DNA of 48,038 bases from contig JAJYFL010000017.1 in NCBI GenBank assembly GCA_021790935.1, positions 1-48,038 of the forward strand, given 5' to 3'. Source of the stretch: a bacterium. Lineage in GTDB: Bacteria > Vulcanimicrobiota > Vulcanimicrobiia > Vulcanimicrobiales > Vulcanimicrobiaceae. The stretch's first letter is position 1, and each line of letters opens with the position of its first letter. Both the position numbers and the translations under genes were made by a program. The notes under the pieces were generated by a model. That model was not told where the DNA came from. It saw only the letters and a list, made by a program, of their open reading frames with translations, and did no database searches. Of this stretch, positions 16,981-31,827 are shown one piece after another.

Positions 16981-17082
16981 ATCCCCCGTCGCTCCCCGGC
17001 TCGGAGGGCGAACCGGCAGCGGTGAGGAACCGCGGGGGGTCATGGGAAGCCCGGCGCGCCGCGGCATCCCGCTATCAGGAGG
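16981..17082 (+). promoter_or_regulatory. Structured GC-rich leader before the cbs-cgl operon
   Basis: The leader can fold into a closing stem (16981-16988 with 17033-17040, with one G-U pair). That stem holds an inner CCGG..CCGG hairpin (16996-17016) and a GCGGT-GAGGA-ACCGC hairpin (17019-17033). A further GC-rich palindrome lies at about 17050-17062, just before the Shine-Dalgarno. It does not match the SAM-I, SAM-II or cobalamin consensus as I know them. The three-way shape and the sulfur-metabolism context suggest a cis-regulatory RNA, but this is tentative. Confidence 0.25.
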
Positions 17083-17089
17083 TTCCGTC

Positions 17090-18496
17090 TTGTCGACCAC
17101 GGCCCCGATCGACCGGCACGCCGGCATGCGCTACTGTGAAGACGCGCTTGAAGCGATCGGTCATACCCCGCTCGTAAGACTCAACAAGGTCACCGGCGGC
17201 GCTCGCTGCCTGATGCTGGCCAAGATCGAGTACATGAACCCGGGCGGCAGCGTCAAGGACCGCCCGGCTATCGCGATGATCGAGGCGGCGGAGCAAGCCG
17301 GTCTCCTTAAGCCCAGCGGGACGATCGTCGAGCCGACCAGCGGCAATACCGGTTCTGGACTAGCGATGGCGGCAGCCATTCGCGGTTACCGCTGCATATT
17401 GGTGATGCCCGATAAGATGTCGCGGGAGAAAGTCGACCTCTTGCGAGCCTACGGCGCCGACGTCGTCGTGACGCCGACCAACGTGCCGAACGATTCGCCC
17501 GAATCCTACTACGGGGTCGCCAACCGGCTGGCCGCAGAGATCCCCGGGGCATTCCAACCCAACCAGTTCCACAACCCGGTCAACCCGGTCGCGCACTACC
17601 GAACGACCGGCCCCGAGATATGGGAGCAGACTGCCGGGAAGATCACCCATCTCGTTGCCGGCATCGGTACCGGCGGAACGATCTCCGGCACGGCACGCTT
17701 CCTGAAAGAGTGCAACCCGAAGATCCACGTTGTCGGTGCGGACCCCGAGGGCTCGATCTACTCCGGCGACACCCCGAAATCGTATGCGGTCGAGGGGATC
17801 GGCATGTCCTACCTGCCCGAGACCGTCGACATGAAGGTCATCGACGAGATGGTCCGCGTCTCGGACCGCGATTCGTTTCTCATGGCCCGCCGAATCACAC
17901 GCGAAGAAGGCTTGCTGGTCGGCGGTTCCTCCGGTACCGCAGCCGTCGCGGCCGTGCGGCTGGCCGCCACGCTTCCGGCCGAAGCCGTCCTCGTCGTGAT
18001 CTTCCCGGACTCGGGTAAAGGCTACATGTCGAAGATATTCAACGACGAGTGGATGATCGCGAACGGCTTCCTGGCCGAGGGCAAACGCCTCGCGACCGTA
18101 GGCGACGTGCTGCGCAGCAAACGCCCGATGCCCCCGATGATCACCGTGCAGGACACCGACGTCGTCAAAGATGCGCTCGATCTCTTGCGCCGTTATGAGA
18201 TATCGCAGATCCCCGTCATGCGCGGCCACGAGCAGATCGGCAGCATCAACGACGTCGCAGTCATGCAGTCCGTATTCGACCGCTCCGACATTCTGCACAA
18301 ACCGGTGACCGAAGTCATGGGGCGGCCGTTCCCCGTTCTCGAACAATCCGATGAGATCTCGAAGGCGTACAAACTTCTGACGCTGGCCAACCCGGCCGTC
18401 GTCGTCACCGACGCCGACGACCCGGTCGGCGTCCTTACCCGCCAGGATATCATCAGCTTTCTCTCCACCTCTTCCGAGACGCTGCGACCCGCATGA
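17090..18496 (+). CDS. Cystathionine beta-synthase with C-terminal CBS domains
   Basis: The 468-residue PLP enzyme condenses serine (or O-acetylserine) with homocysteine to cystathionine. The N-terminal fold-type-II core has the PLP Lys56 in NPGGSVKDRPA, then EPTSGNTGSGLAM and the phosphate-binding GTGGTISG. Two CBS domains follow from about residue 340 (LRRYEISQIPVM, NPAVVVTDADDPVGVLT). An AGGAGG site (17077-17082) lies 7 nt before the TTG at 17090, which sets that start. The next ATG is 36 nt further on. It is coupled to the cystathionine lyase gene by ATGA. Confidence 0.9.
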   Translation: MSTTAPIDRHAGMRYCEDALEAIGHTPLVRLNKVTGGARCLMLAKIEYMNPGGSVKDRPAIAMIEAAEQAGLLKPSGTIVEPTSGNTGSGLAMAAAIRGYRCILVMPDKMSREKVDLLRAYGADVVVTPTNVPNDSPESYYGVANRLAAEIPGAFQPNQFHNPVNPVAHYRTTGPEIWEQTAGKITHLVAGIGTGGTISGTARFLKECNPKIHVVGADPEGSIYSGDTPKSYAVEGIGMSYLPETVDMKVIDEMVRVSDRDSFLMARRITREEGLLVGGSSGTAAVAAVRLAATLPAEAVLVVIFPDSGKGYMSKIFNDEWMIANGFLAEGKRLATVGDVLRSKRPMPPMITVQDTDVVKDALDLLRRYEISQIPVMRGHEQIGSINDVAVMQSVFDRSDILHKPVTEVMGRPFPVLEQSDEISKAYKLLTLANPAVVVTDADDPVGVLTRQDIISFLSTSSETLRPA

Positions 18497-19668
18497 AGTT
18501 CAGCACGAGAGCGATCCACGCCGGTCAAGGCGCCGACCCGGCTACCGGCGCGACCATCGTCCCGATCTACCAAACGTCGACCTACACGCAGGAAGCCGTC
18601 GGCGTTCACAAGGGCTACGACTATAGCCGAACCGCGAACCCGACGCGCGCCGCTCTGGAGACCCAGCTCGCCGCCTTGGAGGACGCACGTTTTGGCTGCG
18701 CGTTCTCGAGCGGGATGGCAGCGACGGCAGCGGCGCTGAACCTGTTGTCCGCGGGAGATCACGTCGTCGTAACCGACGACCTCTACGGCGGAACCTATCG
18801 GCTCTTCGCGCGAGTGCTCGCACGCTACGGCATCGGCTTCACCTACGTGGATATGTCGGATCTCGAAGCCCTTGAGGCCGCCGTCGAAACCAACACGAAG
18901 ATGTTTTGGATCGAGACGCCCACGAACCCCCTGCTCAAACTCATCGACATCGCAGCGGTCTGCGCTCTTCGCGACGCTCGGCATCCCGAAGGGCAGCGCG
19001 CGGTCGTCGCGGTCGACAATACGTTTGCATCGCCGTACTTTCAGTCGCCGCTGGCGCTCGGAGCCGACCTCGTGGTGCATTCCACCACCAAGTACATCGG
19101 CGGCCACAGCGACGTCGTCGGCGGTGCGGTTCTCACCAACGACCAGGCGCTGCACGACGTCGTCAAGTTCCACCAGAACGCCGTGGGCGGAGTACCCAGC
19201 CCGCACGACGCCTATCTCACGATGCGCGGCGCCAAAACCCTCGCGCTCCGCATGCGCGAGCACGAGCGGAACGCGCTGGCGATCGCCGGCTTTCTCGAGT
19301 CGCATCCGCAGGTGGAGCGCGTCTACTACCCAGGGCTGCCATCGCATCCGCAACACGAACTGGCGAAACGCCAAATGAGCGGATTCGGCGGGATGCTTTC
19401 GTTCACGCTCCTCGGACCGCAGCGGCGCGCGATCGATTTCGCAAACCGCATGCGCTACTTCAGCCTGGCAGAGAGCTTGGGCGGGGTTGAGTCGCTGATC
19501 TGCCATCCGGCTCGAATGACGCACGGATCGATTCCCAGGGAGGAGCGCGAGAGGCGCGGCATTACCGACGGCTTGCTCCGGCTCTCCGTCGGCATCGAAG
19601 ACCTCAGCGATTTGATCGCAGACCTCGGCGATGCGCTCGAAGGATCGGCGCGCGACTATTCGCGGTAG
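18493..19668 (+). CDS. Cystathionine gamma-lyase / gamma-synthase family enzyme
   Basis: The 391-residue fold-type-I PLP enzyme of the Cys/Met metabolism family shows YSRTANPTR, the FSSGMAA phosphate-binding stretch, and PLP Lys200 in HSTTKYIGGHSD. ESLGGVESLICHPA lies near the C-terminus. With the upstream beta-synthase it would complete reverse transsulfuration (homocysteine to cysteine). Gamma-lyase is therefore more likely than gamma-synthase, but sequence alone does not settle it. The stop overlaps the convergent secreted-protein gene by 13 nt. Confidence 0.9.
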   Translation: MKFSTRAIHAGQGADPATGATIVPIYQTSTYTQEAVGVHKGYDYSRTANPTRAALETQLAALEDARFGCAFSSGMAATAAALNLLSAGDHVVVTDDLYGGTYRLFARVLARYGIGFTYVDMSDLEALEAAVETNTKMFWIETPTNPLLKLIDIAAVCALRDARHPEGQRAVVAVDNTFASPYFQSPLALGADLVVHSTTKYIGGHSDVVGGAVLTNDQALHDVVKFHQNAVGGVPSPHDAYLTMRGAKTLALRMREHERNALAIAGFLESHPQVERVYYPGLPSHPQHELAKRQMSGFGGMLSFTLLGPQRRAIDFANRMRYFSLAESLGGVESLICHPARMTHGSIPREERERRGITDGLLRLSVGIEDLSDLIADLGDALEGSARDYSR

Positions 19669-20228
19669 CGATCGATTGGGAAGGCGACGGCCGTAAGGTT
19701 CGCCAGATCTGCCTTCGCCTGTCTCTCGCCGAGCTCGCCCATTCGCGCGCTCTCGGAGACGATCACACCTCGCACGCCGTCGACCCACTCGTACTGATAG
19801 ATGCGCTTGGCGTGGAAACCCGAGCCCACGCTGACGCCGACCCAATACGCCGGCATCCCGTTGGAAAGCGCGGTGAGTTGTTTCTTGTCGACGAACAGCG
19901 TGCCGGCTTGCGAGTGCAAAGTGCTCTCGGTGGTACCTTCGAAATCGTTTAGCGAGCCCTGCTCGTCGTCCATGGTAATGACGATCAGACGTTCGTCGAG
20001 CTGCCCGGCATCCTTCACGAAGGCCGCCACCGTCGTACGCCCGCCGAAGCTCGTCGGATCCCGATGCGCGGCGACGGGCAATGCGGTGAATCCAGCGGGG
20101 GCGACGAACTTCATCGCCGGATCGCTAAAGCCCGCCGGCGTCGGCGCGGGCGAAGGCTGCGGGCTTGCCGCACCTAGAAGGCAGCCGGCCAGCAGCGAAG
20201 CTGCCAGCAACCCGATCGTCTTTCTCAT
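19656..20228 (-). CDS. Secreted protein of unknown function
   Basis: The 190-residue protein starts with a signal peptide (MRKTIGLLAASLLAGCLLGAAS). LLAGC could be a lipobox with Cys16. The mature part begins with a Pro-rich linker, then a compact beta/alpha domain with FVAPAGFTALP and VSVGSGFHAKRIYQYEWV. It looks like a PsbP/MOG1-type substrate-binding shape, but this is inference. Its ATG overlaps the stop of the small ORF upstream by ATGA, and it runs convergent to the cystathionine lyase. Confidence 0.7.
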   Translation of the reverse strand: MRKTIGLLAASLLAGCLLGAASPQPSPAPTPAGFSDPAMKFVAPAGFTALPVAAHRDPTSFGGRTTVAAFVKDAGQLDERLIVITMDDEQGSLNDFEGTTESTLHSQAGTLFVDKKQLTALSNGMPAYWVGVSVGSGFHAKRIYQYEWVDGVRGVIVSESARMGELGERQAKADLANLTAVAFPIDRYRE

Positions 20229-20398
20229 CTTCTCTCCAAAACGGCCGCCGTTACGGTGGTCGTCGTCGGATTCTTCGTGGACAGCGAAAACTCATCGGCG
20301 AGAGCGCGATGGAATTCCGGTCGTCTCTCTTGCGCCGTTTGGAAAAGGTCGGCCACGCTGTCGTTGTGGCGCGCCCACCCCCCCCCCAGTTCCGGCAT
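20225..20398 (-). CDS. Small ORF with a ten-G tract near its start
   Basis: This 57-residue reading frame begins MPEL, passes through a run of ten G (20387-20378 on the minus strand) that encodes three Gly codons, and continues as an Arg/Glu-rich helix ending in AVLERR. Its TGA overlaps the next gene's ATG (ATGA), which supports real translation. A one-base change in the G run would shift the frame, so expression could vary. No family is recognised, and assembly error in the homopolymer is possible. Confidence 0.4.
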   Translation of the reverse strand: MPELGGGWARHNDSVADLFQTAQERRPEFHRALADEFSLSTKNPTTTTVTAAVLERR

Positions 20399-20672
20399 AA
20401 GCAGCCCACAAAGGCTGCTGTCACGGCCCTTTTGGCCTATATAACGGCGCTCTCTTCCCGCGGCCCTTGCTCCAGACGATCGGCACATCTTTAGAAACGC
20501 GCGCTACTCCAACCGTCTAGGCAATCTCGCGCGCGGACGCCCTGCTTGCCCGTCTGCCACCGGCAAGGAACCGTACGGCCGTTGCCTAATGGGGCCGAAC
20601 CGCCGGTCGGTTGATCTTCTCACCAGTAGAGGCCGTTAATTTATCGGCATGGCGGGAACCAAGGGGCAGCAT
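20399..20672. other. Intergenic stretch with no recognised gene
   Basis: About 270 nt separate the small ORF from the low-GC insert. A TATATAAC box lies near 20440. TTGATC (about 20612) and a TTAATT (about 20637) lie 19 nt apart before the next gene. No convincing promoter, RNA or terminator could be established. Confidence 0.4.
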
Positions 20673-21419
20673 ATGGACGGCTATCAGAGGGTGTATCTCC
20701 TCTCGCAAGATGGGCTGCAAATAGCTCGCATTCAAAATGCAACTCTGCATACGGACTTTGGCTTTGCGCTTGACCATGGGCTCTTTGGAAGCGATGACTG
20801 GTGGCGCGCAATCGAGCGCGGGGAACTTTCGGTGTACTCCGTACGCGGCACCATTTGTGCCTTGCTTATGGAGAGCCAGAATGATTGGCCCATCTTTAGG
20901 ATTCTCACGGAGGACGGTGTTGTAACGGGGTCTATTACCCGTGAGGCACTTCCGCAAACGGCCGAACTGTACCAAGTAGGAAGACGCGTAATATGGAAAT
21001 ATGTCGAAACGCCCTTGAAACGACCCGTTCAAGAATTGTCAACGACGAGTAAGGTCACTCTGGAGGTTTGGGTTGCAGAAACGGTGATACTGTACCGCCC
21101 CGTGGGTCCAGACGAGTTGAACCTGATAGCCGGCTCTGGCTACAGTCACTTCCCGCCCAGGCTTCCGGAACAGTCCATTTTTTACCCGGTTTGTACTCAA
21201 GAATACGCCGAAGCAATCGCTTCAAACTGGAACGTGCGAGACAGCGGGTGCGGCTACGTCACCAGGTTCGAAGTGGATAAGCAGTATCTAGACCGCTACG
21301 AAGTCCATCAAGTAGGCAACAATAGACATCGAGAGTACTGGATTCCGGCTGATGAATTGGCCGAGTTCAATGGGCATCTTATCGGCAAGATTCAGATCGT
21401 GAAAGCATTTCGCACATAA
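20673..21419 (+). CDS. Protein with C-terminal ADP-ribosylation/crystallin-J1-like small domain
   Basis: The 248-residue protein has two halves. Residues 1-130 are an unrecognised alpha/beta domain with DWWRAIERGELSVYSVRGTI. Residues 140-248 match a short family that databases often label ADP-ribosylation/crystallin J1: VILYRPVGPDELNLI, PPRLPEQSIFYPV, GYVTRF, REYWIPADEL. The biochemistry of that family is not established to my knowledge. ATG 20673 is chosen because AAGGGG lies 6 nt upstream; ATG 20649 is also in frame. Base composition is clearly less GC-rich than the flanking genes, which suggests transfer. Confidence 0.65.
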   Translation: MDGYQRVYLLSQDGLQIARIQNATLHTDFGFALDHGLFGSDDWWRAIERGELSVYSVRGTICALLMESQNDWPIFRILTEDGVVTGSITREALPQTAELYQVGRRVIWKYVETPLKRPVQELSTTSKVTLEVWVAETVILYRPVGPDELNLIAGSGYSHFPPRLPEQSIFYPVCTQEYAEAIASNWNVRDSGCGYVTRFEVDKQYLDRYEVHQVGNNRHREYWIPADELAEFNGHLIGKIQIVKAFRT

Positions 21420-21423
21420 ACAT

Positions 21424-22053
21424 ATGCTACCTAGGCTATCTAGGGTACTAGCACTTGCGGGCGTGGCGTTGCTCTTGGGCCTGGGGACACCGCCTAAGGT
21501 GCCGCGCCCTGCGTCGGGTGCCGTATTCTACCTCCGTTACTGCGGCGGGCGCCCAAGGCGCGTGTTGCATGTTGAAGCGTACGATCACGGCACCAGTTCG
21601 CAGCCGCGTGACGTAATCGTCAGCCGGGTAGTGCGACGCCAGGGAAGATCGGACGGCATTTATGTGCCCCTGCCCGAGGGCGGTTACCAGGTCTCCCTTT
21701 ACGACGGCCTATGCAGCGCGAACGTAACGTTTGCTGTGCTAGCCAATCGTGTGCGGCCCGTGAACGCTAAAATGGAACGCTATTCAACTTCTCCTGTATA
21801 CGAGGACCGGGACATGTACGGGCCCGCAGGCGATCTCGCCGGCTCGCTGCCGAATCGCGGCATGAGCCTGACGCTAGTGGGATCGAATCAAAACGTCTAT
21901 AGCGCCGTGATCTCCGGCGATGCATACTATTTCGACGACATGCCCGCGGGCCAGTACAGACTCGAACTACGAGGCAGCAACTTCTCCGTCGACAAGACGG
22001 TCAGAATCCCTGAGAACTTTGACCTCATGCGAGTAGATTTGCCGGCTCTTTAG
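21424..22053 (+). CDS. Secreted beta-sandwich protein
   Basis: The 209-residue protein begins with a signal peptide (residues 1-23). Two short beta-sandwich repeats follow. Each has a run of hydrophobic strands ending in a GGYQVSLYDG or AGQYRLELRG turn, typical of carboxypeptidase-regulatory-like (PEGA/SpaA-type) folds. It begins 4 nt after the upstream gene's stop and shares its lower GC, so the two form one insert. The role is unknown; secretion suggests a surface partner. Confidence 0.65.
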   Translation: MLPRLSRVLALAGVALLLGLGTPPKVPRPASGAVFYLRYCGGRPRRVLHVEAYDHGTSSQPRDVIVSRVVRRQGRSDGIYVPLPEGGYQVSLYDGLCSANVTFAVLANRVRPVNAKMERYSTSPVYEDRDMYGPAGDLAGSLPNRGMSLTLVGSNQNVYSAVISGDAYYFDDMPAGQYRLELRGSNFSVDKTVRIPENFDLMRVDLPAL

Positions 22054-22340
22054 ATCTATGTCTTTCTGTTCAAAGAAACGGAGCCGCCGCTCTTCAGGCT
22101 TACGTCTTGGCGGGCGGTGATCGTGAGACGATGACGTGGGAGGCCTGCGGAGCGGCGCTCCTCGCCGAGCCTGTCTTCGTGCTGACTATTAACCGACGAA
22201 TAAACCGGACACTCAGGCCTAGCAAGACCGGGCCCGCCCCTAACCACAGCGCGGCGTGCAGTCTTCATCGTCTATGATCCCAAGACGGGCAACGGCGCGC
22301 CTTTGCGCCGCCGCCAGGGCCGCCGTAGACTGCACCGAAG
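22054..22340. other. Intergenic stretch with paired 9-nt inverted repeat
   Basis: No gene is supported here. GTGCAGTCT (22256-22264) is the exact reverse complement of AGACTGCAC (22328-22336), directly before the transporter-glycosidase ATG. The pair could form a long-range stem or flank an operator. Otherwise the stretch is GC-rich and featureless. Confidence 0.35.
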
Positions 22341-25300
22341 ATGCCGGCCATGATACGCGGTATCGGAACGCGCGGGGCCGTTGCCGTCAACGTGATCGCA
22401 ATGATCGGCATCGGCCCGCTGATTACCATACCGCTGGTACTCGCGCAGCTCGCCGGGCCGCTCGCGCTCGTCGGGTGGATCGCCGGCGCGGTAGTCGCGC
22501 TGTGCGACGGTCTGGTCTGGGCGGAACTGGGATCGCGCTATCCCGGCTCCGGCGGTACGTACGTCTATCTGCGCGAGGTCTTCGGGAACGCGACGTGGGG
22601 GCGTCTGCTCGCCTTTCTATTCAACTGGCAGTTCCTGCTCTACGCGCCCTTTCTTTTGGCGAGCGGCTATATCGGTTTCGCGAATTATGCCGGGTACTTC
22701 TTTCCGGCGCTCGCCGCTTCGCCGGCGCTGCACGTGGCCGCCGCGGTGGGCATCGGGCTGTTGACGATCGCGCTGCTCTACCGGCGGATCGATGCCGTGG
22801 CATCGTTGAGCGTCGCGCTTGCAGTCGCAGCGATCCTCACGCTCTTGCTCGTGATCGCGGCCTCGCTGCCGCACGCCAACTTCCATCGCGCGCTTACGCT
22901 CGCGGCGCCGGTTACGTTCGGCTGGGGCTTCCTCGCGGGCCTGGGCGGCGCGCTCTACATCACGCTCTACGACTACGTCGGGTACTCCGCCGCGGCCACG
23001 CTGGGGGACGAAGTGCGCGCGCCGTCTCGTACGATACCGTTGGCCACGATCCTATCGATTCTGATCGTAGCCGCCCTCTATATCGCACTACAGGTGGGCG
23101 TGCTCGGAATCGTGCCCTGGCAAGAACTCGTTGGGCGAAACGGCGCCGCGCCGCCGCCGAGCGCGCAATACGTCGCCGCCACGGTCGTGCAGCGCACGTG
23201 GGGCGTCTGGGCCGCCGGCGCGGTCACGATCCTGATCCTCGTTACGGCCTTCGCTTCGCTCTTCGGCAATCTGCTCGGCTTTTCGCGAATCCCTTACGCC
23301 GCCGCACGCGACGGCGCGTTTCTCCCGATCTTCGCCCGCCTCCATCCAGAAAAGCAGTTCCCTCACGTATCGCTGCTCGCCATCGGCGCCATCTCGCTCT
23401 GCGCGTGCTTCTTCTCGCTCGAGCAGGTCATCGCCATTCTCACCACCGGAAGCGTATTGATTCAGAACGTCGCTCAGATAGCGGCGCTCTTCGCTTTGCG
23501 GCTGCGCGGCACGCGGGCGCCGTTTCGCATGTGGCTTTTCCCTCTCCCGGCGCTGGTCGCGCTCGTCGGCTGGCTGCTGGCCTTCGCCTATGCCGGCGCG
23601 CTGCCGATCGCTTTGGGCATCGGCTGGCTAGTCGTGGGCATCGCCGCCTTTCTCACCACCGCCCGCACCCAACGCAACTGGCCGTTCGTCGCCCGCACGG
23701 CCGCCGCGCTGCTGCTCGCACTCGGCGCGTACGGCGTCCGCCCCGCCGACGCCGCTTGGCACGCGAGCGCCCTCGTGCGCGAACATGGGTACCCGGTCTT
23801 TGCGGTCCACCGCAAACCGTTCTTCGTCTACGCTGCGGCATTCTTTTACGAACGCATTCCGCGTTCGCAGTGGCGTGCGTCCCTGCAAGCCTATCGCGAG
23901 CTCGGTATCAACACGATCGATCTCTACGTCATGTGGAACTGGCACGCTTCGCAGGCTCCGCGGACGGCTCGGGGAACGCTGCGCCAAATCTTCGACTTCA
24001 CCGGGCGTACCAATCCGCGCCGCGATCTGGTCGGCTTGCTGAAGCTGATCGACGCCATGGGTTTCAAAGTGATCCTCCGGCCCGGTCCCGTCATTCGAAA
24101 CGAGTGGCGCAACGGCGGTTATCCGGCGTGGCTGCTCGAGCGCCCCGCCTACGACATGCCGCTGCACGACGTACTGCAAGGGCGCTATCCGGCCACGGCC
24201 ACGCTGCAGAACGCGCATGCCGACGATGCCGCCGCCGAGTGGATGCACAACGCCACGCACATGCGCTACGCCGCGCAGTGGCTGCGAGCGGTGCTTCGAG
24301 CGGCCGCGCCCTGGCGCCGCGACGTGATCGCGATAGCGCTCGACGACGATCAAGGCGCCTACATCGACAATCAGACGTGGCCCGCGCCGCATTGGCAGGC
24401 GTACGTGCGCTATCTGAAGTCCGTCGTGCAGAGCGTCGTCGGAGACCGCCTGCCGTTGTTCATCAACACGTATCAAATGAAAGTCACCGCCTCCGCTCCC
24501 GTATGGGCGTGGGGCAATTGGTATCAGAGCGATGCCTACAGCATCGGCGAGCACGACCGCGCTCAGCTCGAATTTTCGACCGGGCTGCTGCAGACGCAAG
24601 CACGCCTTCCCGTCATGATCAGCGAGTTTCAGGCCGGCTGGCTGCAGGGCGCCGGCGCCGCCTATCCGCGCAGCGCCGACCCGACCAACACGAGTCTCGC
24701 GCTGCATACGCTCTTGCAGATGGGCATGCACGGCGTCGTGAACTTTCCGGTCCAGGATACGCTCGATCCGGCCGGTTGGGAGGCGCCGTGGGCCAATGCG
24801 TTCTACGGCTGGGATGCCGCGCTCTCGCTCGAGTTGACGCGCCAGGCTCGATGGGCACCTACCAGGCGTTTCGGCGAGCTGCTGCGCGCCTACGGGCCGC
24901 TGCTCGCACGCACGCACCCCGTCACCGACGCCGCAGTTGCCTACCTGACGAGCGCGTACCACGCGCCGATGCTGAGTAACGCTCAGATCGGGCGGATCGC
25001 CGCCGCCACCATTGCCGTCCAGCAGGGGTGCCGCTCGCGGGCGCTCGCCTGCCGCCTCGTCGATCTGCGCTACGACTCGGTACGCGACTTGCTCCGCAAC
25101 CGCGTGCTGATCGTACCGCGCACGGGCCTGCCCCTTCGCTATACGCGCAGCGCCGAGCGAAAGATCGCGGCGTTTCGGCGCGCAGGCGGCCGGATCGTGC
25201 ATTCGGCCGGCGCGGCGCGAGCGCTCGTGAACCCGGCCGCCGGCGGCGTGCGCGACGCGGCGTTCTTAGCCGCCGACGACGGGCGTTTCGGATTCCTCGA

Positions 25301-26315
25301 CATCGTCAATTACGCTTCCGCAGCGATGCGAACGCCGGGCACCCGGCTGATGCTGGGGACGCGTACGATCTTCGTCCCGCCCACGAACGTACCCGCACGG
25401 GGCGCGCTGCTGTTGCCGATCGGTCTGCCGCCATCGCTGCGGCATCCTCAACCCGAACCTGCGCGCGTCTCGAACGCCCTCCCAGCCGGCGCGATCCCTT
25501 TGCGCGATGGCGCGTACGTGACCGGCGCGCACCTGCGCGCCGTCCCACGCGGCCGGGCCATTGCATATATGACCGATGCATTTGCCGACGGCGAACCCGT
25601 TGCCGTCCTCGAAAATGATCGCGTGCGCCTGATCGTCTCCCCCGACGCCGGCGCTCGCAGCTTCGTCTTCGAGGACAAAGCGACGCGTACCAATCTCTTC
25701 TCGACCGTCGGCGGGCTTCGCGACGACGTGTCGATGCCGTTGCCGCCCTCGCCGCGCGATTACATCGCGCGTTACACCCACCCAATGCCGGCGGGCTTCT
25801 TCAACCGCCCGTACGTGCCACGCGTTACGAGCTCCGGTTCGCGCGCCTCGGTCCGGTTTTCATACGACGCGCCCGATGCGCCGCCCGGCGGCGCGCTTTT
25901 CGAGCGGGTAGTCACCATGTTGCCGAACCGGCCCGGCTTCACCGTAGACGAACGCGTGCGCTTCCACGGAGACGACGTACCGGCGGCGCAACGGCCGGTC
26001 GTACGTACGTCGTTCGCGAGCGGCGCGCAGACGCTCGCGCTCGAGTTACCCGACGGCTGCGCGTTCTACCGCCCGAGCCTTCACCGCGTCGTCCTCGTAG
26101 CGTGGCCAGCCGGCGACGTCGTCGCACGAGCGCTTGCCCCAGAACGGGGGAACCTCTTGCTCTCGCTGACCTACGCGCGCGGCGGCACGCGCCGCACCGT
26201 ATTCGCGGTCCGCGGCGCGGCTACGCCCGCGGCGGCACGCGCGCTCTTGGCCGCGTTTTCCGCATCGATCCATCCGCCGCAAGGACGTGCGGCGACGGAC
26301 GCGAATCGGCGGTAG
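22341..26315 (+). CDS. APC-type transporter fused to GH35-like glycosidase and mutarotase-like domain
   Basis: One continuous frame of 1324 residues. Residues 1-445 form an APC-superfamily permease: about 12 membrane helices, with the helix-1 motif IAMIGIGP and DYVGYS in helix 6. A thirteenth hydrophobic helix (about 451-468, ending ADA-A) would carry the chain outside. Residues 484-840 are GH35-like: PFFVYAAAFFYERIP, YVMWNWHAS and ILRPGPVIRNEW. The nucleophile Glu762 is in ISEFQAGWL. The usual acid/base block ENEYG reads DDDQG (668-672). From about 1086 a mutarotase-like beta domain follows (LIVSPDAGARSFVFEDK). The whole would cleave a sugar at the outer face and perhaps import a product. 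Substrate is unknown; ATG 22350 is an alternative start. No frameshift or stop lies between the domains. Confidence 0.85.
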   Translation: MPAMIRGIGTRGAVAVNVIAMIGIGPLITIPLVLAQLAGPLALVGWIAGAVVALCDGLVWAELGSRYPGSGGTYVYLREVFGNATWGRLLAFLFNWQFLLYAPFLLASGYIGFANYAGYFFPALAASPALHVAAAVGIGLLTIALLYRRIDAVASLSVALAVAAILTLLLVIAASLPHANFHRALTLAAPVTFGWGFLAGLGGALYITLYDYVGYSAAATLGDEVRAPSRTIPLATILSILIVAALYIALQVGVLGIVPWQELVGRNGAAPPPSAQYVAATVVQRTWGVWAAGAVTILILVTAFASLFGNLLGFSRIPYAAARDGAFLPIFARLHPEKQFPHVSLLAIGAISLCACFFSLEQVIAILTTGSVLIQNVAQIAALFALRLRGTRAPFRMWLFPLPALVALVGWLLAFAYAGALPIALGIGWLVVGIAAFLTTARTQRNWPFVARTAAALLLALGAYGVRPADAAWHASALVREHGYPVFAVHRKPFFVYAAAFFYERIPRSQWRASLQAYRELGINTIDLYVMWNWHASQAPRTARGTLRQIFDFTGRTNPRRDLVGLLKLIDAMGFKVILRPGPVIRNEWRNGGYPAWLLERPAYDMPLHDVLQGRYPATATLQNAHADDAAAEWMHNATHMRYAAQWLRAVLRAAAPWRRDVIAIALDDDQGAYIDNQTWPAPHWQAYVRYLKSVVQSVVGDRLPLFINTYQMKVTASAPVWAWGNWYQSDAYSIGEHDRAQLEFSTGLLQTQARLPVMISEFQAGWLQGAGAAYPRSADPTNTSLALHTLLQMGMHGVVNFPVQDTLDPAGWEAPWANAFYGWDAALSLELTRQARWAPTRRFGELLRAYGPLLARTHPVTDAAVAYLTSAYHAPMLSNAQIGRIAAATIAVQQGCRSRALACRLVDLRYDSVRDLLRNRVLIVPRTGLPLRYTRSAERKIAAFRRAGGRIVHSAGAARALVNPAAGGVRDAAFLAADDGRFGFLDIVNYASAAMRTPGTRLMLGTRTIFVPPTNVPARGALLLPIGLPPSLRHPQPEPARVSNALPAGAIPLRDGAYVTGAHLRAVPRGRAIAYMTDAFADGEPVAVLENDRVRLIVSPDAGARSFVFEDKATRTNLFSTVGGLRDDVSMPLPPSPRDYIARYTHPMPAGFFNRPYVPRVTSSGSRASVRFSYDAPDAPPGGALFERVVTMLPNRPGFTVDERVRFHGDDVPAAQRPVVRTSFASGAQTLALELPDGCAFYRPSLHRVVLVAWPAGDVVARALAPERGNLLLSLTYARGGTRRTVFAVRGAATPAAARALLAAFSASIHPPQGRAATDANRR

Positions 26316-26340
26316 TGCTCTAGGAGGCTGTCGGAAGCGG

Positions 26341-26425
26341 GGGGAAGTGGCGGAACGGTAGACGCAGCCGCCTCAAAAGCGGCCGGGCACACCCCATGTG
26401 GGTTCGATTCCCACCTTCCCTACCA
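26341..26425 (+). tRNA. tRNA-Leu(CAA)
   Basis: The 85-nt class II tRNA has a long variable arm. The acceptor GGGGAAG pairs with CTTCCCT and includes a G1-U72 pair. The anticodon loop is CTCAAAA with anticodon CAA, the T-arm is GTGGG/CCCAC, and CCA is encoded. It lies 25 nt after the transporter-glycosidase stop. Confidence 0.93.
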
Positions 26426-26507
26426 CCCAGCACACAATCTCCGGGCGCATTCGAGCCCGCGGCGCCGAGGTTCCGCCGACCCGCGCGCGTAACGCACCCG
26501 CGTACAG

Positions 26508-27785
26508 ATGTTGAAGCACGCTCCCTCCTTTCGGCCCGGACCGCTGCGCGGCCGCATCGCGGTTCCCGGCGACAAATCGATCTCGCATCGCGCGCTGGTC
26601 GTCGCAGCCTCGGGGCGCCAACCCGTCCGCATCGCCAATCTCAACCTGGGACGAGACGTCCGTGCCACCATCGGTGCGCTCCGTGCGCTCGGCACCGGGA
26701 TCGACGACGCCGACGGTGCCTTCGTCGTTACGGGCGCGCCATTGCACGATCCGGCACGCGATCTCGACTGCATGAACTCCGGGTCGACCGCACGCATGCT
26801 GATGGGCGTCTGTGCCGGCGCCGCCCTGACCGCACGTCTCGACGGCGACGCATCGCTGCGGGGACGGCCGATGGAGCCGGTTGCGGCCCAACTGCGCGCC
26901 TTCGGCGCACGTATCGAGACAGAGGAAGGCAAGCTGCCCGCACTCTTGGAGGGAACCGCCGCGCCGCAGACGCGCCGGTTCATTCTGCTCTCGCCATCGG
27001 CACAGGTGAAGTCCGCACTGCTCTTCTGCGGTCTCTACGGCGGCGTGCCCGTCGCCGTAACCGGCGACGCAGGTTCGCGCGACCATACCGAGCGGCTCCT
27101 GCGCTATTTCGGCGCCGATATCGAATTCGATCGCCGCTCCGTCGAGCTTCGCGGCGGGCCTACCCGCTACCCCGATATCGAGGTAGCCGGTGATTTCTCC
27201 GCAGCCGCGTTCTTCATCGTCGCCGCGACCATCTCACCCGGAAGCTCGATCGTCGTTGAAAACGTCGGCGTAAACCCTTCGCGCACGGGGCTGCTCGACG
27301 CCCTGCTCGCGATGGGAGCCGACGTACGCCTGCTCAACGCGCGCGAACGCTGCGGCGAGCCCATCGCCGACATCGCGGTAACCTCTGCACCGCTGCAGGC
27401 AATCTCCGTTGGCCGGGAACTCGCACTGCGCGCGATCGACGAGATACCCGTCCTCGCGGTGGCGGCGGCATTTGCCCGCGGCACCACCTCGATCTCCGGG
27501 ATACGCGACCTGCGTACCAAAGAGTCGAACCGCATCGCCGCGATCGAACGCATGTTGGCAGCCGTCGGCATCGCCGTGACGGAGATGCCCGACGGCATAG
27601 CGATCGCGGGCGGCAATCCACGCCCCGTCGAAGCGGCCCTCGTCGAGACGCGCGACGATCATCGCACGGCAATGTCGGTCGCCGCTCTTGCCGCCGGTGC
27701 CGGTCCGCTCGCGATCGACGCCGCGGAGAGCATCGATGTCAGCTTCCCTTCGTTTCTCACGCAGCTGCAGCGGGCGCAGGCATGA
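26508..27785 (+). CDS. aroA: 3-phosphoshikimate 1-carboxyvinyltransferase (EPSP synthase)
   Basis: The 425-residue enzyme joins shikimate-3-phosphate and PEP in aromatic amino acid synthesis. PGDKSISHRALV is the phosphate-binding start, and DCMNSGSTARML, MEPVAAQLRAFGA and IRDLRTKESNRIAA are the later signatures. DDHRTAMS near the C-terminus is also typical. The second signature is MNSGST, where E. coli AroA has LGNAGTA, so it is not the E. coli class. The stop overlaps the methyltransferase start (ATGA). Confidence 0.95.
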   Translation: MLKHAPSFRPGPLRGRIAVPGDKSISHRALVVAASGRQPVRIANLNLGRDVRATIGALRALGTGIDDADGAFVVTGAPLHDPARDLDCMNSGSTARMLMGVCAGAALTARLDGDASLRGRPMEPVAAQLRAFGARIETEEGKLPALLEGTAAPQTRRFILLSPSAQVKSALLFCGLYGGVPVAVTGDAGSRDHTERLLRYFGADIEFDRRSVELRGGPTRYPDIEVAGDFSAAAFFIVAATISPGSSIVVENVGVNPSRTGLLDALLAMGADVRLLNARERCGEPIADIAVTSAPLQAISVGRELALRAIDEIPVLAVAAAFARGTTSISGIRDLRTKESNRIAAIERMLAAVGIAVTEMPDGIAIAGGNPRPVEAALVETRDDHRTAMSVAALAAGAGPLAIDAAESIDVSFPSFLTQLQRAQA

Positions 27786-28630
27786 CGCACGAGCAGCGCT
27801 ACTCTCCCGACGAGTTTGCATCCGAGGCGCGCCACTTGGAGACGCTCGCCTGGGAGGCGTTGAGCGTAACGGTGGGCTCGAACGTGCTCGTCTGCGGTTA
27901 CGGCGGCTCCGGGCAGTTGGTAGCGCGCGCCATCGAAGCCGGCGCGAGCGTCACCGTGATAGAGCATCGCGACGAAGTGATTCGCCGCTTCGCATCGCTT
28001 CCGGCTCGCTTGCTGCGCGGCAGCACGTCGGTTATCCCAGCCCAGGAGAACGCTTTCGATCTGGCGATCGCGGCACACTACCTGCACGAGATCGACCCCT
28101 TCTTCCACGCGCAGGTCGTCTCCGAGCTCGGGCGCGTGGCTCGCCGCATCGCGGTCATAGAGCCGGCACCGCCCTCCGACCCGCTGGGAGAACGCATCGC
28201 GCTGCTCTATTCACAGGCCAAGCGCGAGTTCGGACAGTTCGAATATTACCAGCCGATCGAGTATTGGAAGAAGCTCCTGCAGGCGGTCAAGGCGGAAGTA
28301 TCGCAGCACGTCTTCGCTTTTGCGAAGATGCCGCCGCGCGAGTACCTCACCGACACGATCGATCTCCTATTAGACACGATGGCAGCCGAAGAGACGCCGC
28401 GCGATTATCTCCTCGAGCTGCGCCGGATAGCCGAGGGCTCCGACCTCCAACTCTTGCCGCCTGCACGCTACGTGCTGCAGGGCGCGGCGCTCGGCGAGCT
28501 CCCGAAGCCGGCGTTCAGCCCTCGCTCGCAGCCTGCAGATCCAGAGCCCACGGCCAGGGTGCCGGTCGGGGTGGCCTCCGCAGCTCCACCCGCACCTTGG
28601 TCGTGGGCGCCGCCGGAAAAGCACGCCTGA
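27782..28630 (+). CDS. SAM-dependent methyltransferase-like protein
   Basis: The 282-residue protein has a Rossmann core. Motif I, VLVCGYGGSGQLVARA, binds the cofactor (around 38-53), VTVIEHRDEV carries the acidic residue, and FDLAIAAHYLHEIDPF the post-motif. A helical cap and a Pro-rich tail follow. The substrate is unknown. It is coupled to aroA by ATGA overlap, which may be only convenience. Confidence 0.75.
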   Translation: MTHEQRYSPDEFASEARHLETLAWEALSVTVGSNVLVCGYGGSGQLVARAIEAGASVTVIEHRDEVIRRFASLPARLLRGSTSVIPAQENAFDLAIAAHYLHEIDPFFHAQVVSELGRVARRIAVIEPAPPSDPLGERIALLYSQAKREFGQFEYYQPIEYWKKLLQAVKAEVSQHVFAFAKMPPREYLTDTIDLLLDTMAAEETPRDYLLELRRIAEGSDLQLLPPARYVLQGAALGELPKPAFSPRSQPADPEPTARVPVGVASAAPPAPWSWAPPEKHA

Positions 28631-28657
28631 CCGAAGAGCGGCGAACGATGCGGTGAG

Positions 28658-29005
28658 TTAGCGCAGGGTATGCACGATGAGCCGCAACGCGCGGCTCGCC
28701 GTGCCGAAGGCCGCAGCCACGGCCCCCAGCGGCAGCTCGCTCCAGGAAGCGCGAATCGATGCCAGGGCCAGCCCCACCTCGGCAATTGCATCCTGCAGGC
28801 GCGCAGGCAAGGGTACGAGCCGGCCGCTCTGCCTGCCCAGTGCCTGCAGTCCGTCAATAACTTGATGGTTGCGCAGAAGATCGAGCCGAGCGCGCATGCG
28901 CCAAGCCGCGATTCCAGCGCGAGTCAGGCCGTAGATCGCAAAAAGCAAACCCAACCCGCAGAGGACGAGCGCTATCCAGACCGGATGCGCGATCAGCTCG
29001 CTCAG
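28658..29005 (-). CDS. Small single-membrane-segment protein, likely CTG start
   Basis: The protein would have 115 residues: SELIAHPVWIALVLCGLGLL and the next residues form one membrane segment, followed by a basic helix RAGIAAWRMRARLD and an amphipathic Leu/Ala-rich C-terminal half. It is unrecognised. ATG, GTG and TTG do not occur in frame before 28954 (TTG), which would cut off half of the membrane segment. CTG 29005, in a CTGA overlap with the FmdB-type gene's stop and preceded by AAGGA, gives a natural N-terminus. Confidence 0.55.
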   Translation of the reverse strand: MSELIAHPVWIALVLCGLGLLFAIYGLTRAGIAAWRMRARLDLLRNHQVIDGLQALGRQSGRLVPLPARLQDAIAEVGLALASIRASWSELPLGAVAAAFGTASRALRLIVHTLR

Positions 29006-29229
29006 GCGGCCGATTCCTTGACCGGCGCCTTCTCGCTCGACGGCTTCGAGGCGGGACGCGAATCGTTGACGTAAAAGCCGGAACCTCTGAACAGGATCGG
29101 CGCCGGGTTAAAGACGCGAGCGAGCGAGCCACCGCAAGCCGTACACGACTCGGAGTGCGTCTCTTCGAACCCGTGGCGCACTTCGGTGATTCGCTTGCAC
29201 GCAGAGCATTGGTAATCGTAGAGCGGCAT
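29002..29229 (-). CDS. FmdB-family zinc ribbon protein
   Basis: The 75-residue protein starts MPLYDYQCSAC and has a second Cys pair in SCTACGG, forming the FmdB/CxxC_CxxC_SSSS zinc ribbon. FRGSGFYVNDSR near the C-terminus is the usual ending. These proteins are regulators or assembly factors of unknown target. ATG 29229 is preferred over the upstream in-frame ATG 29247, because it gives the family's MPxYxYxC start. Confidence 0.85.
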   Translation of the reverse strand: MPLYDYQCSACKRITEVRHGFEETHSESCTACGGSLARVFNPAPILFRGSGFYVNDSRPASKPSSEKAPVKESAA

Positions 29230-29272
29230 GAACCAAAGTATACCCAATCCTAGCAGTCGCCGTCAACGACTG

Positions 29273-29803
29273 CTAAAAGTCTGCAAGGGCGGGATCTCCA
29301 CGGTTTTCGAACTCGACCAGCCCACGAAAGGCGGCCAGTGACTCTTCCAGAGCATTGTCCAGCTTCCGGCCGTAACGAAGCCGGTCGTACAGCATGCCAA
29401 GGCGGCCGCCATAGGCGGGGTAGTCGATGCGAAGGTGTATCTTCGAGCGCGAAGAGCCCGTAGCATCGGTCCGCGAGATCTTACGCTCCACGCGAACGTC
29501 GATGCGCCGCCGCACCGAATACGCGCCGACGAGCGAGAGGTGGAAGTCCCGGATAAAACGGTCGACTTCGTAGGTCTGCTCGGGCTCTCCCGGGATCGTC
29601 GAGCGCACGACGACCTCGCTGCCGACTTCGAGCGGTTCGCCGGGTTTGGCGCGCTCGGCGCTACGCACAAAGGCCAGCCAGACCGGCCACTTTTCAGGCG
29701 TGGCAAGCAGCGAGAATGCCGCCTCGGCGCTCGTCCCAACATCCAGCGAACCCGTAACGGAGCGGACATTGAGTTTTGCGGACGGCGAGCTCACGAACGC
29801 CAT
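29273..29803 (-). CDS. SRPBCC/polyketide-cyclase-like lipid-binding fold protein
   Basis: The 176-residue protein has the START-type pattern: VTGSLDVGTSAEAAFSLLATPEKWPVWLAFV near the N-terminus, a curved beta-sheet with GSEVVVRSTIP, and a final long helix (NALEESLAAFRGLVEFENRG). These bind hydrophobic ligands or cofactors. ATG 29803 begins just before the fold. The in-frame GTG 29854 is an alternative that lies 3 nt after the M20 stop. Confidence 0.7.
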   Translation of the reverse strand: MAFVSSPSAKLNVRSVTGSLDVGTSAEAAFSLLATPEKWPVWLAFVRSAERAKPGEPLEVGSEVVVRSTIPGEPEQTYEVDRFIRDFHLSLVGAYSVRRRIDVRVERKISRTDATGSSRSKIHLRIDYPAYGGRLGMLYDRLRYGRKLDNALEESLAAFRGLVEFENRGDPALADF

Positions 29804-29857
29804 CCCGCGCAGTTCAACGACCCCATATGGTGTGCCTCTTGGCCGCCCTACCACAAC

Positions 29858-31054
29858 CTATGGAGAAGGCCGCGCGACCAGCTCGACCTGCCCGGACCCT
29901 ACGCCGACTGCGAAGGCGACGAGCGTCTCCACGCCGGCCGGCAGGGCCTCTTCGTCGACGCGAAAGAGCGGCGAGTGGCCCGAGTGTACCGAGCCCACCT
30001 TCTCGCTGCGAATGCCCAGTCGCACGTGGAGGCCTGGAACGCGCTGCGCAAAGTAGGCGAAGTCTTCGGCCCCCATCGTCGGCGCCGGCCGCTCGACGTG
30101 CAAAGTTCCCCGCGCCTTCATGTATCGCGCGAAACTCTCGGCTAGGGTGACGTCGTTGACGACCGGCGGATAGCCGTACGTGACGTCGAGGGAGGCTCGA
30201 ACGCCGTAGGCCGCAGCCACGCCGTCCAGAATCCGTCGCGCGCGGGGCTCGAGAGCCGCGCGAATCTCCGGATCGTGGGCGCGAAACGTCCCCGTCATCT
30301 TGACGCGGTCGGCGATGACGTTATTACGGTACCCACCCGCGATCGTCCCGACCGTTACGACGACGCTGGCGAGCGGATCGGTCTCGCGTGCCGCGATGTT
30401 TTGCAACGCGAGGATCGCCGCTGCGGCCGCCGGAATCGCATCCGCCGCGGTGTGCGGATAGGCTCCGTGGCCGCCGCGGCCTTCGATCTCGACCGCAAAC
30501 TCGTCCGCCGAGGCATTGACGGGGCCCGGTGTGATACCGATCGAGCCGGTCGGCAGGCGCGGATCCACATGCAGCATCGCAACCGCTGCGACCGGCGGCT
30601 CGTCGAGCGCGCCCTCGGCAATCATGCGCTCGGCGCCCCCGGGACCTTCTTCGGCGGGTTGGAAGAGCAGCACGACGGTCCCGGCGAGATCCGCGCGCAT
30701 CCTTTGCAGCACGCGCGCGGCACCGAGGAGCATCGCAGTGTGCGCGTCGTGCCCGCAGGCGTGCATCTTCCCTGCAACCTCCGAAGCGAAGAGCTCGCCG
30801 GAACGCTCGCCGATCGGCAGCGCATCCATATCTGCGCGGAGTCCCACCACGCGGCCGGGCTTCGCTCCGCGGATCGCACCGGTTACGCCGGTGCCGGCGA
30901 TTCTCCGGTGCTCGATACCAAGCGCATCGAGCTCGCGCTCGATCAGCGCCTGCGTTTCGAACTCTTCGAGCCCAAGCTCGGGATGACGGTGAATCGCCCG
31001 GCGTAACTCCACGACGCGCGCCGCAACTTCTTCCGAAGGCACAATAGCGTTCAT
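29858..31054 (-). CDS. M20 family amidohydrolase
   Basis: The 398-residue metallohydrolase resembles hippurate or N-acyl-amino-acid amidohydrolases. Metal ligands are visible in MHACGHDAH (Cys100, His102) and QPAEEGPGG (Glu pair near 134), plus a later HSPLF near the C-terminus. RADMDALP and RGGHGAYPH (dimerisation lid) are also present. ATG 31054 is chosen; the longer in-frame start at 31108 would lie on the divergent gene's start codon. Confidence 0.9.
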   Translation of the reverse strand: MNAIVPSEEVAARVVELRRAIHRHPELGLEEFETQALIERELDALGIEHRRIAGTGVTGAIRGAKPGRVVGLRADMDALPIGERSGELFASEVAGKMHACGHDAHTAMLLGAARVLQRMRADLAGTVVLLFQPAEEGPGGAERMIAEGALDEPPVAAVAMLHVDPRLPTGSIGITPGPVNASADEFAVEIEGRGGHGAYPHTAADAIPAAAAAILALQNIAARETDPLASVVVTVGTIAGGYRNNVIADRVKMTGTFRAHDPEIRAALEPRARRILDGVAAAYGVRASLDVTYGYPPVVNDVTLAESFARYMKARGTLHVERPAPTMGAEDFAYFAQRVPGLHVRLGIRSEKVGSVHSGHSPLFRVDEEALPAGVETLVAFAVGVGSGQVELVARPSP

Positions 31055-31107
31055 ACCGGCGTCTTTGTTCGGCGGTACGCGCGACCCTTTTGACGAAGCC
31101 CCCGCCA

Positions 31108-31827
31108 ATGATCTCGCCCGACCTGGCCATGGCCCTGCTGGTCAATCGCACGGCCGCCGCTTACACCGGCAACGCACCCGCCTACATCGCCTACCGCGAG
31201 CGCACGCACGTCAGCGCGCCCGCACTCGGCCGCTCGCAAGAGATCGACCGGTACGTCGAGGTACGCGTCGCCGACGATTATGCCGTCATGCAAGACCTGC
31301 CGCGCGGTGCGGTGCGGACGGGCGAAGCCTTTCCGATCATCCCGTATTTCGACCCATTTTCGTCATTCGAGTTCAGCTACTACGCCAATCTCAAGAGCGT
31401 CGACATCACGCTCTCGCGCGGCAGCCCCATCGTGCTGAACCTTCCCCCGCCGGATCCAAGCGTCAACGCCGTCGTGCCGTACAATAGTTACTGGGACCCG
31501 CAATATGCGCCCGACTCCACGGCCGGCGCCCTCCATCTGCTGGTCGCGCCGACGCCGCGCGTCGGCAACGGCTTCTATCCGAGCGACGTCGTCGAAGATC
31601 CGGTGACGCGCTTGCCCTCGCGCATCGTGATGACGACGGTCGCAAACGACGAAACCATCGCCTTCGATTTTCGCTCGATCGACGGATATTGGGTGATCGT
31701 TCGCGGAACGTTCACGGCGCAAGAACGCGTCGGCCTCCTAGCGTTTCGGGTCGTAGCCGACGTGACCTACGATGAGTTTTCGTTCCCGAAGACCCCTCCC
31801 GACCCAAGGCTCGCTGCTACGCCATGA
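31108..31827 (+). CDS. Conserved-looking protein of unknown function
   Basis: The 239-residue protein is not recognised. It is beta-rich with repeated Tyr/Pro motifs (YFDPFSSFEFSYYA, YNSYWDPQYAP) and no signal peptide, although a short hydrophobic N-terminus could be membrane-associated. The start ATG 31108 is shared with the M20 gene's possible upstream start. TTG 31090 is an alternative. It ends in an ATGA overlap with the GT39 gene, so it may serve the same envelope pathway. Confidence 0.6.
   Translation: MISPDLAMALLVNRTAAAYTGNAPAYIAYRERTHVSAPALGRSQEIDRYVEVRVADDYAVMQDLPRGAVRTGEAFPIIPYFDPFSSFEFSYYANLKSVDITLSRGSPIVLNLPPPDPSVNAVVPYNSYWDPQYAPDSTAGALHLLVAPTPRVGNGFYPSDVVEDPVTRLPSRIVMTTVANDETIAFDFRSIDGYWVIVRGTFTAQERVGLLAFRVVADVTYDEFSFPKTPPDPRLAATP

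What the first reader, a model, noticed from the sequence alone, without database searches (positions are those of the whole stretch)
22341..26315. APC-type transporter fused in one frame to a GH35-like glycosidase and a mutarotase-like domain
The sequence shows a full 12-helix permease, a thirteenth helix with a signal-like ending, then a GH35-type barrel and a C-terminal beta domain, with no stop or frameshift between. Established knowledge: GH35 enzymes are usually soluble or secreted single proteins, and APC carriers normally transport amino acids. I know of no described transporter-GH35 fusion. Inference: the extra helix puts the hydrolase outside, so cleavage and uptake may be joined in one polypeptide.
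Basis: partly seen in the sequence, partly recalled or inferred. Interest (0 to 1): 0.8.

Follow-up and report, generated by a model that had tools for sequence, protein, structure and literature searches.

The report
Transporter fused to secreted sugar-cleaving enzyme
A soil-bacterium lineage (Candidatus Eremiobacterota) makes a membrane transporter and a GH35-like sugar-cleaving enzyme as one long protein joined by a built-in export signal; the arrangement is real and kept in about half of the family's genomes, and neighbouring genes in relatives hint that the transporter carries amino sugars rather than amino acids.

Summary
Window 22341-26315 is one open frame of 1324 codons: an APC/LAT-type permease, a short thirteenth helix, a GH35-like barrel, an alpha/beta domain and a C-terminal beta domain. 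It is not an assembly join: congeners match end to end (96-97%), and 48 of 99 held genomes of the same Eremiobacterota family give one unbroken hit across the junction. About 20 others carry both proteins as separate genes. The joint is a built-in signal peptide (AxA motif in 41 of 43 fusions; separate copies of the enzyme start with ordinary signal peptides). The enzyme is therefore probably periplasmic, and signal peptidase may cut it free; tethering is not shown. The catalytic site is unusual but strictly conserved: nucleophile Glu762 in 70/70, but DDD where GH35 has (E)NE, so the acid/base Glu is Asp. Where the permease stands alone, the next gene is often a glucosamine-6-phosphate-deaminase-like SIS protein (8 of 26) or a ManA-like isomerase (4 of 26). 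My reading: exo-glycosidase plus product permease, probably for amino sugars. 'Mutarotase-like' is unsupported at sequence level. Pairing is frequent, not obligate.

The parts
22341..26315 (+). whole fused open reading frame, 1324 aa
   Evidence: full-length homologues
22341..23669 (+). APC/LAT-type permease, 12 helices (residues 1-443)
   Evidence: Pfam AA_permease_2; nearest solved relatives xCT, LAT1, BasC; model matches BasC, TM 0.88 by target
23682..23753 (+). short helix 13 with AxA end (residues 448-471, A469-D-A471): internal signal-peptide-like junction
23790..24905 (+). GH35-like (beta/alpha)8 barrel (residues 484-855)
   Evidence: Pfam GH35; NCBIfam exo-beta-D-glucosaminidase model as best GH35-type partial match; fold search
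24096..24104 (+). R586-N587-E588: E588 aligns with GlmA Glu103; R-N replaces Cys-Gly
   Evidence: RN in 68 of 70
24342..24350 (+). D668-D669-D670 in place of GH35 (E)NE: D669 at the GlcN-recognising Asp178 position of GlmA, D670 at the acid/base position
   Evidence: 66 of 70, the other 4 lack the scored motif
24624..24626 (+). E762, predicted nucleophile in motif EFQAGW
   Evidence: aligns with proven nucleophile E343 of I. album IaSGT; 70 of 70
24909..25427 (+). alpha/beta middle domain with invariant Cys897 and Cys904
25566..26282 (+). C-terminal beta-rich domain (residues 1076-1314) of unknown family

Best explanation
It is a coupled 'cut and take up' system encoded as one reading frame. 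The APC/LAT-type permease sits in the inner membrane; the short thirteenth helix acts as an internal signal peptide and carries the GH35-like enzyme into the periplasm. Signal peptidase I then probably cuts after the AxA motif, leaving permease and free periplasmic enzyme in equal amounts; if it does not, the enzyme stays tethered beside the transporter. The enzyme most likely removes a terminal sugar from a beta-glycoside, probably an amino sugar such as glucosamine, and the permease imports it for conversion by cytoplasmic SIS- and PMI-type sugar-phosphate isomerases. Shown: one frame, conservation, domain identities, signal-peptide-like joint, conserved pocket, gene neighbours of the standalone permease. 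Inferred: periplasmic location, cleavage, catalysis, substrate, coupling.
For: Single unbroken frame in 48 of 99 family genomes. A second set carries both parts as separate genes, which is Rosetta-stone type evidence. The junction looks like a signal peptide: AxA in 41 of 43 against 29.8 +/- 2.6 in shuffles, maximum 38 in 2000; separate enzymes begin with ordinary signal peptides that resemble the fused linker. Only 4 of 43 fusions have an ATG near the joint, so separate initiation is not general. Barrel, subsite -1 Tyr/Glu and nucleophile Glu conserved. D669 sits where archaeal GlmA has the Asp that recognises the amino group of GlcN (PMC6566704). Of 26 standalone permease loci, 8 have a GlmS/NagB-II-like SIS gene and 4 a ManA-like gene directly adjacent, 11 of the 12 on the same strand; GH20 hexosaminidase also adjacent in G011 and G074.
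Against: The acid/base Glu is replaced by Asp throughout, so the enzyme may not hydrolyse ordinary glycosides. Several genomes have the enzyme but no permease of this group (e.g. G069 and G082, 95-96% complete), and some have the permease without the enzyme (G007, G022, G034, G037), so pairing is not obligate. The permease's closest solved relatives are amino-acid carriers. The window's own fused gene is not next to SIS, PMI or GH20; its conserved neighbours are cystathionine-pathway genes and aroA. In the window's genome the SIS homologue lies in another cluster with peptidoglycan genes and may be a paralogue.
Confidence: 0.5

Rival explanations
1. A bacterial look-alike of heteromeric amino acid transporters: the GH-fold domain is a catalytically weak or dead ectodomain that stabilises or modulates an SLC7-like amino-acid permease, as the SLC3 heavy chains 4F2hc and rBAT do, but covalently fused.
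For: Nearest solved permease relatives are HAT light chains (xCT, LAT1) and BasC. Both systems have a single helix leading to an extracytoplasmic GH-fold ectodomain (PMC8537225). Acid/base Glu is lost. Conserved neighbours CBS and CGL are sulphur amino-acid genes.
Against: Different GH fold family (GH35-like, not GH13). The pocket is strictly conserved, unlike rBAT orthologues, where the triad is not kept. No Cys in the permease TM3-TM4 loop for the HAT disulphide (sequence). The enzyme exists alone with its own signal peptide. Standalone permeases neighbour sugar isomerases.
Confidence: 0.2
2. Co-production only: the fusion is an expression arrangement, cut by signal peptidase, and the two proteins have no direct mechanistic link.
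For: Signal-peptide-like joint with AxA; helix 13 is only about 16 residues; each part occurs without the other in some genomes.
Against: The fusion is kept across about 19 genera, and genomes rarely hold both a fused and a standalone permease of the group.
Confidence: 0.25
3. Assembly or annotation artefact: two adjacent genes joined by a missed stop or frameshift.
For: None; one relative (G018) has a broken frame.
Against: 48 genomes with open junctions, many from independent assemblies.
Confidence: 0.01

Closest known systems
[quoted passage not shown] PDB 5GSL, 5GSM, 6JOW, 8OUG)
   Same: Best sequence and fold relatives; barrel start, subsite -1 Tyr and Glu, Asp before the acid/base position
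   Different: Acid/base Glu is Asp here; C-G before the conserved Glu is R-N; ~14-15% identity over the full fold alignment; GlmA is not fused to a transporter
Ignavibacterium album beta-1,2-glucosyltransferase (GH35; 7VKW)
   Same: EFQAG motif carrying the proven nucleophile E343
   Different: N175-E176 acid/base pair is DD here; cytosolic, no signal peptide, not fused
Heteromeric amino acid transporters (SLC7 light chain + SLC3 heavy chain)
   Same: LAT-type APC permease, one helix, GH-fold ectodomain outside
   Different: GH13-type and two polypeptides joined by a disulphide in animals; here GH35-like and one frame
BasC and other bacterial LATs
   Same: APC fold (TM 0.88 to 9H76)
   Different: BasC is an alanine-serine-cysteine exchanger crystallised as a transporter alone; no enzyme domain
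FrlA (APC fructoselysine permease) with FrlB (SIS deglycase)
   Same: APC permease alongside an SIS-domain sugar enzyme; weak model match (NF008466, E 3.5e-19)
   Different: Far below the FrlA cutoff (69 vs 800 bits); the SIS neighbour is closer to GlmS/NagB-II than to FrlB

Membership tests
GH35 (CAZy, clan GH-A) | Sequence match to the GH35 model | tested here: met
   PF01301 94.6 bits vs cutoff 27, but only 103 of 319 model positions
[quoted passage not shown]
   model pLDDT 80; top PDB matches are GH35 enzymes
GH35 (CAZy, clan GH-A) | nucleophile Glu at end of strand 7 | tested here: met
   E762, aligned with IaSGT E343; 70/70
GH35 (CAZy, clan GH-A) | acid/base Glu at end of strand 4 | tested here: not met
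   D670; DDD wherever the motif could be scored, 66 of 70
GH35 (CAZy, clan GH-A) | retaining beta-glycosidase activity | not testable with these tools
   needs enzyme assay
APC superfamily, LAT/ABT branch | sequence match and LeuT-type fold | tested here: met
   PF13520 E 6e-40; BasC/LAT1 fold matches
APC superfamily, LAT/ABT branch | amino-acid transport | not testable with these tools
   gene neighbours of standalone relatives suggest sugar instead
Heteromeric amino acid transporters | heavy chain of GH13 type | tested here: not met
   GH35-like
Heteromeric amino acid transporters | intersubunit disulphide from the light-chain TM3-TM4 loop | tested here: not met
   no Cys in that loop (sequence, helices)
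Signal-peptidase-cleaved precursor | h-region followed by AxA | tested here: met
   41 of 43 fusions
Signal-peptidase-cleaved precursor | actual cleavage in the cell | not testable with these tools
   needs protein-level data

The most novel reading that the evidence does not exclude
A new kind of nutrient scavenger: an amino-sugar-specific APC permease permanently tethered to a periplasmic exo-glycosidase that works with Asp as acid/base, passing its product straight to the transporter, and architecturally convergent with animal SLC7-SLC3 heteromeric transporters.
Probability: 0.15. Interest if true: 0.85.

Novelty: new variant of a known kind. Interest (0 to 1): 0.62.

Why it matters
It would be a conserved example of an exo-enzyme and its product transporter translated as one chain with an internal signal peptide, in a phylum known mainly from metagenomes. 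If the tether persists it gives a bacterial analogue for asking why animal SLC7 transporters carry a sugar-hydrolase-fold partner. It also predicts an amino-sugar substrate for an APC carrier group and a GH35-like group with a variant catalytic site.

Tried and rejected
Artefact by missed stop: rejected. Two starts, i.e. two proteins from one region: rejected as a general rule, since only 4 of 43 fusions have an ATG near the joint, though 21 of 43 have some ATG/GTG/TTG. A single origin of the fused permease could neither be shown nor excluded (AU p 0.258); on the enzyme tree fused and separate states interleave (10 changes, at least 7 forced), on the permease tree 4 changes. C-terminal and middle domains: no family by profile search. 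Transsulfuration neighbours as a clue to substrate: set aside, because the same block flanks the enzyme whether or not the permease is there. FrlA/FrlB reading: weaker than GlmS/NagB-II by model scores. Literature searches gave no described GH35-transporter fusion, but only open-licence papers and a few term sets were covered. Relative orientation of permease and barrel in the model was not used (pTM 0.55).

Full report
WHAT IS THERE. The frame 22341-26315 on the plus strand is open for 1324 codons. Residues 13-422 match AA_permease_2 (E 6e-40) and residues 488-603 match GH35 (E 1e-26); the best GH35-type NCBIfam match, also partial, is the exo-beta-D-glucosaminidase model. The record titles of the near relatives name Candidatus Eremiobacterota (WPS-2).

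IT IS REAL AND CONSERVED. Two genomes of the same genus carry the same 1324-aa protein at 96-97% identity, and differences among the three are mostly synonymous in permease and barrel. A query spanning the junction gives one unbroken hit in 48 of 99 held genomes of the same family, about 19 genera, none with an internal stop. G078 is fused by its ORF although its hit splits; G015 and G020 break at contig ends exactly at or near the joint. Roughly 20 genomes have both proteins as separate genes, in most cases on different contigs or far apart. The enzyme was found in 86 family genomes and, above partial hits to ordinary GH35 genes, not in other families of the phylum; a scan of 84,980 species genomes with two conserved motifs returned 70 loci, all Eremiobacterota or unlabelled or apparently mislabelled MAGs.

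THE JOINT. Fused proteins share a basic stretch and a WPF motif, then 13-16 hydrophobic residues and AxA. AxA occurs in 41 of 43, against 29.8 +/- 2.6 in shuffles of the same residues, maximum 38 in 2000. Separate enzymes begin with ordinary signal peptides, in places nearly the same as a fused linker (L108 '...LFPLHARAASGW', L123 '...AVPMHARAASGGW'). The basic residues between helices 12 and 13 place that side in the cytoplasm and the enzyme outside (inference by the positive-inside rule); two invariant cysteines in the middle domain fit an oxidising compartment. The model gives helix 13 about 16 residues at low confidence. A cleaved signal peptide therefore looks at least as likely as a permanent anchor; no tool here can decide.

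THE ENZYME. The barrel model (pLDDT 80) matches archaeal exo-beta-D-glucosaminidases and the I. album beta-1,2-glucosyltransferase best. Profile alignment puts E762 on the proven nucleophile E343 of the latter (PMC8861115), and D669 on GlmA Asp178, which recognises the amino group of glucosamine; D178N is inactive there (PMC6566704). The acid/base position is D670 instead of Glu. DDD was found in 66 of 70 sequences (the other four lack the scored motif, some being incomplete), the nucleophile Glu in 70 of 70, and R-N before the conserved Glu588 in 68. Loss of the acid/base Glu is a failed membership feature for GH35; strict conservation of the pocket argues against a dead fold. PMC6566704 itself warns that catalytic residues of this group are hard to assign from sequence, so the assignments here are predictions.

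THE PERMEASE. By profile the nearest solved relatives are xCT, LAT1 and BasC, and the model matches BasC with TM 0.88 by target. In 26 standalone loci of the same group, 8 have an SIS-domain gene directly next to it and 4 a class I PMI-like gene; gaps are a few bases to about 50, and 11 of the 12 are on the same strand, upstream (G011 is convergent). The SIS protein scores best with GlmS and NagB-II models, well below their cutoffs, and with GlmS and glucosamine-6-phosphate deaminase structures. GH20 genes follow in G011 and G074, whose permeases lie with the fused type on the tree. In the window's genome the nearest SIS homologue is in another cluster, with a PMI-like gene, an amidase_2, a DAP-decarboxylase-type gene, a D-Ala-D-Ala carboxypeptidase and oligopeptide transport genes; some genomes hold two SIS copies, so this may be a paralogue.

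EVOLUTION. The enzyme sits at one syntenic place (CBS - CGL - 19656 homologue - esterase - enzyme or fusion - aroA) in fused and separate genomes alike. The state changes 10 times on the enzyme tree (at least 7 forced) and 4 times on the permease tree; one clade of fused-type permeases is not rejected (p 0.258). The simplest reading is a permease that moved in front of an enzyme with a signal peptide, followed by splits or losses, but repeated fusion is not excluded. In genus g9 some genomes are fused and others separate.

LIMITS. Pairing is not obligate: some near-complete genomes have the enzyme without this permease, and others the permease without the enzyme. Location, cleavage, activity and substrates are inferred.

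NOVELTY. Enzyme-transporter fusions are known as a kind (general knowledge); I found no described APC-GH35 one (limited library). I file it as a new variant. The parallel with animal SLC7-SLC3 transporters (PMC8537225) is in architecture, not membership: two defining features are not met.

Noticed in passing
window 20649-22053: Two predicted genes without Pfam match stand where about 60 related loci have a divergently transcribed putative esterase (PF00756); the window's genome has no good copy of that esterase.
   Followed up: partly
window 17018-31108: Gene order CBS, CGL, 19656 homologue, (fusion), aroA, methyltransferase, cyclase-like, M20 peptidase is widely kept across the family, whether or not the permease is fused.
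   Followed up: partly
window 26341-26425: tRNA-Leu (CAA) starts 26 bases after the stop of the fused gene, before aroA.
   Followed up: no
L128 / G018:C49 20228-23262: The fused gene is broken into several frames in this MAG: pseudogene or assembly error.
   Followed up: no
G083:C47 and G083:C137: This genome (8% contamination estimate) carries two fused copies.
   Followed up: no
L101, L111: Contigs titled Rhodospirillales carry the family's fusion, in L101 with the same gene order; the titles are probably mislabelled MAGs.
   Followed up: no
L182 3944-17531 (G000:C20): Cluster of PMI-like, amidase_2, DAP-decarboxylase-type, D-Ala-D-Ala carboxypeptidase, SIS, TonB-receptor-like and oligopeptide transport genes: looks like a peptidoglycan-turnover or recycling cluster.
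   Followed up: partly
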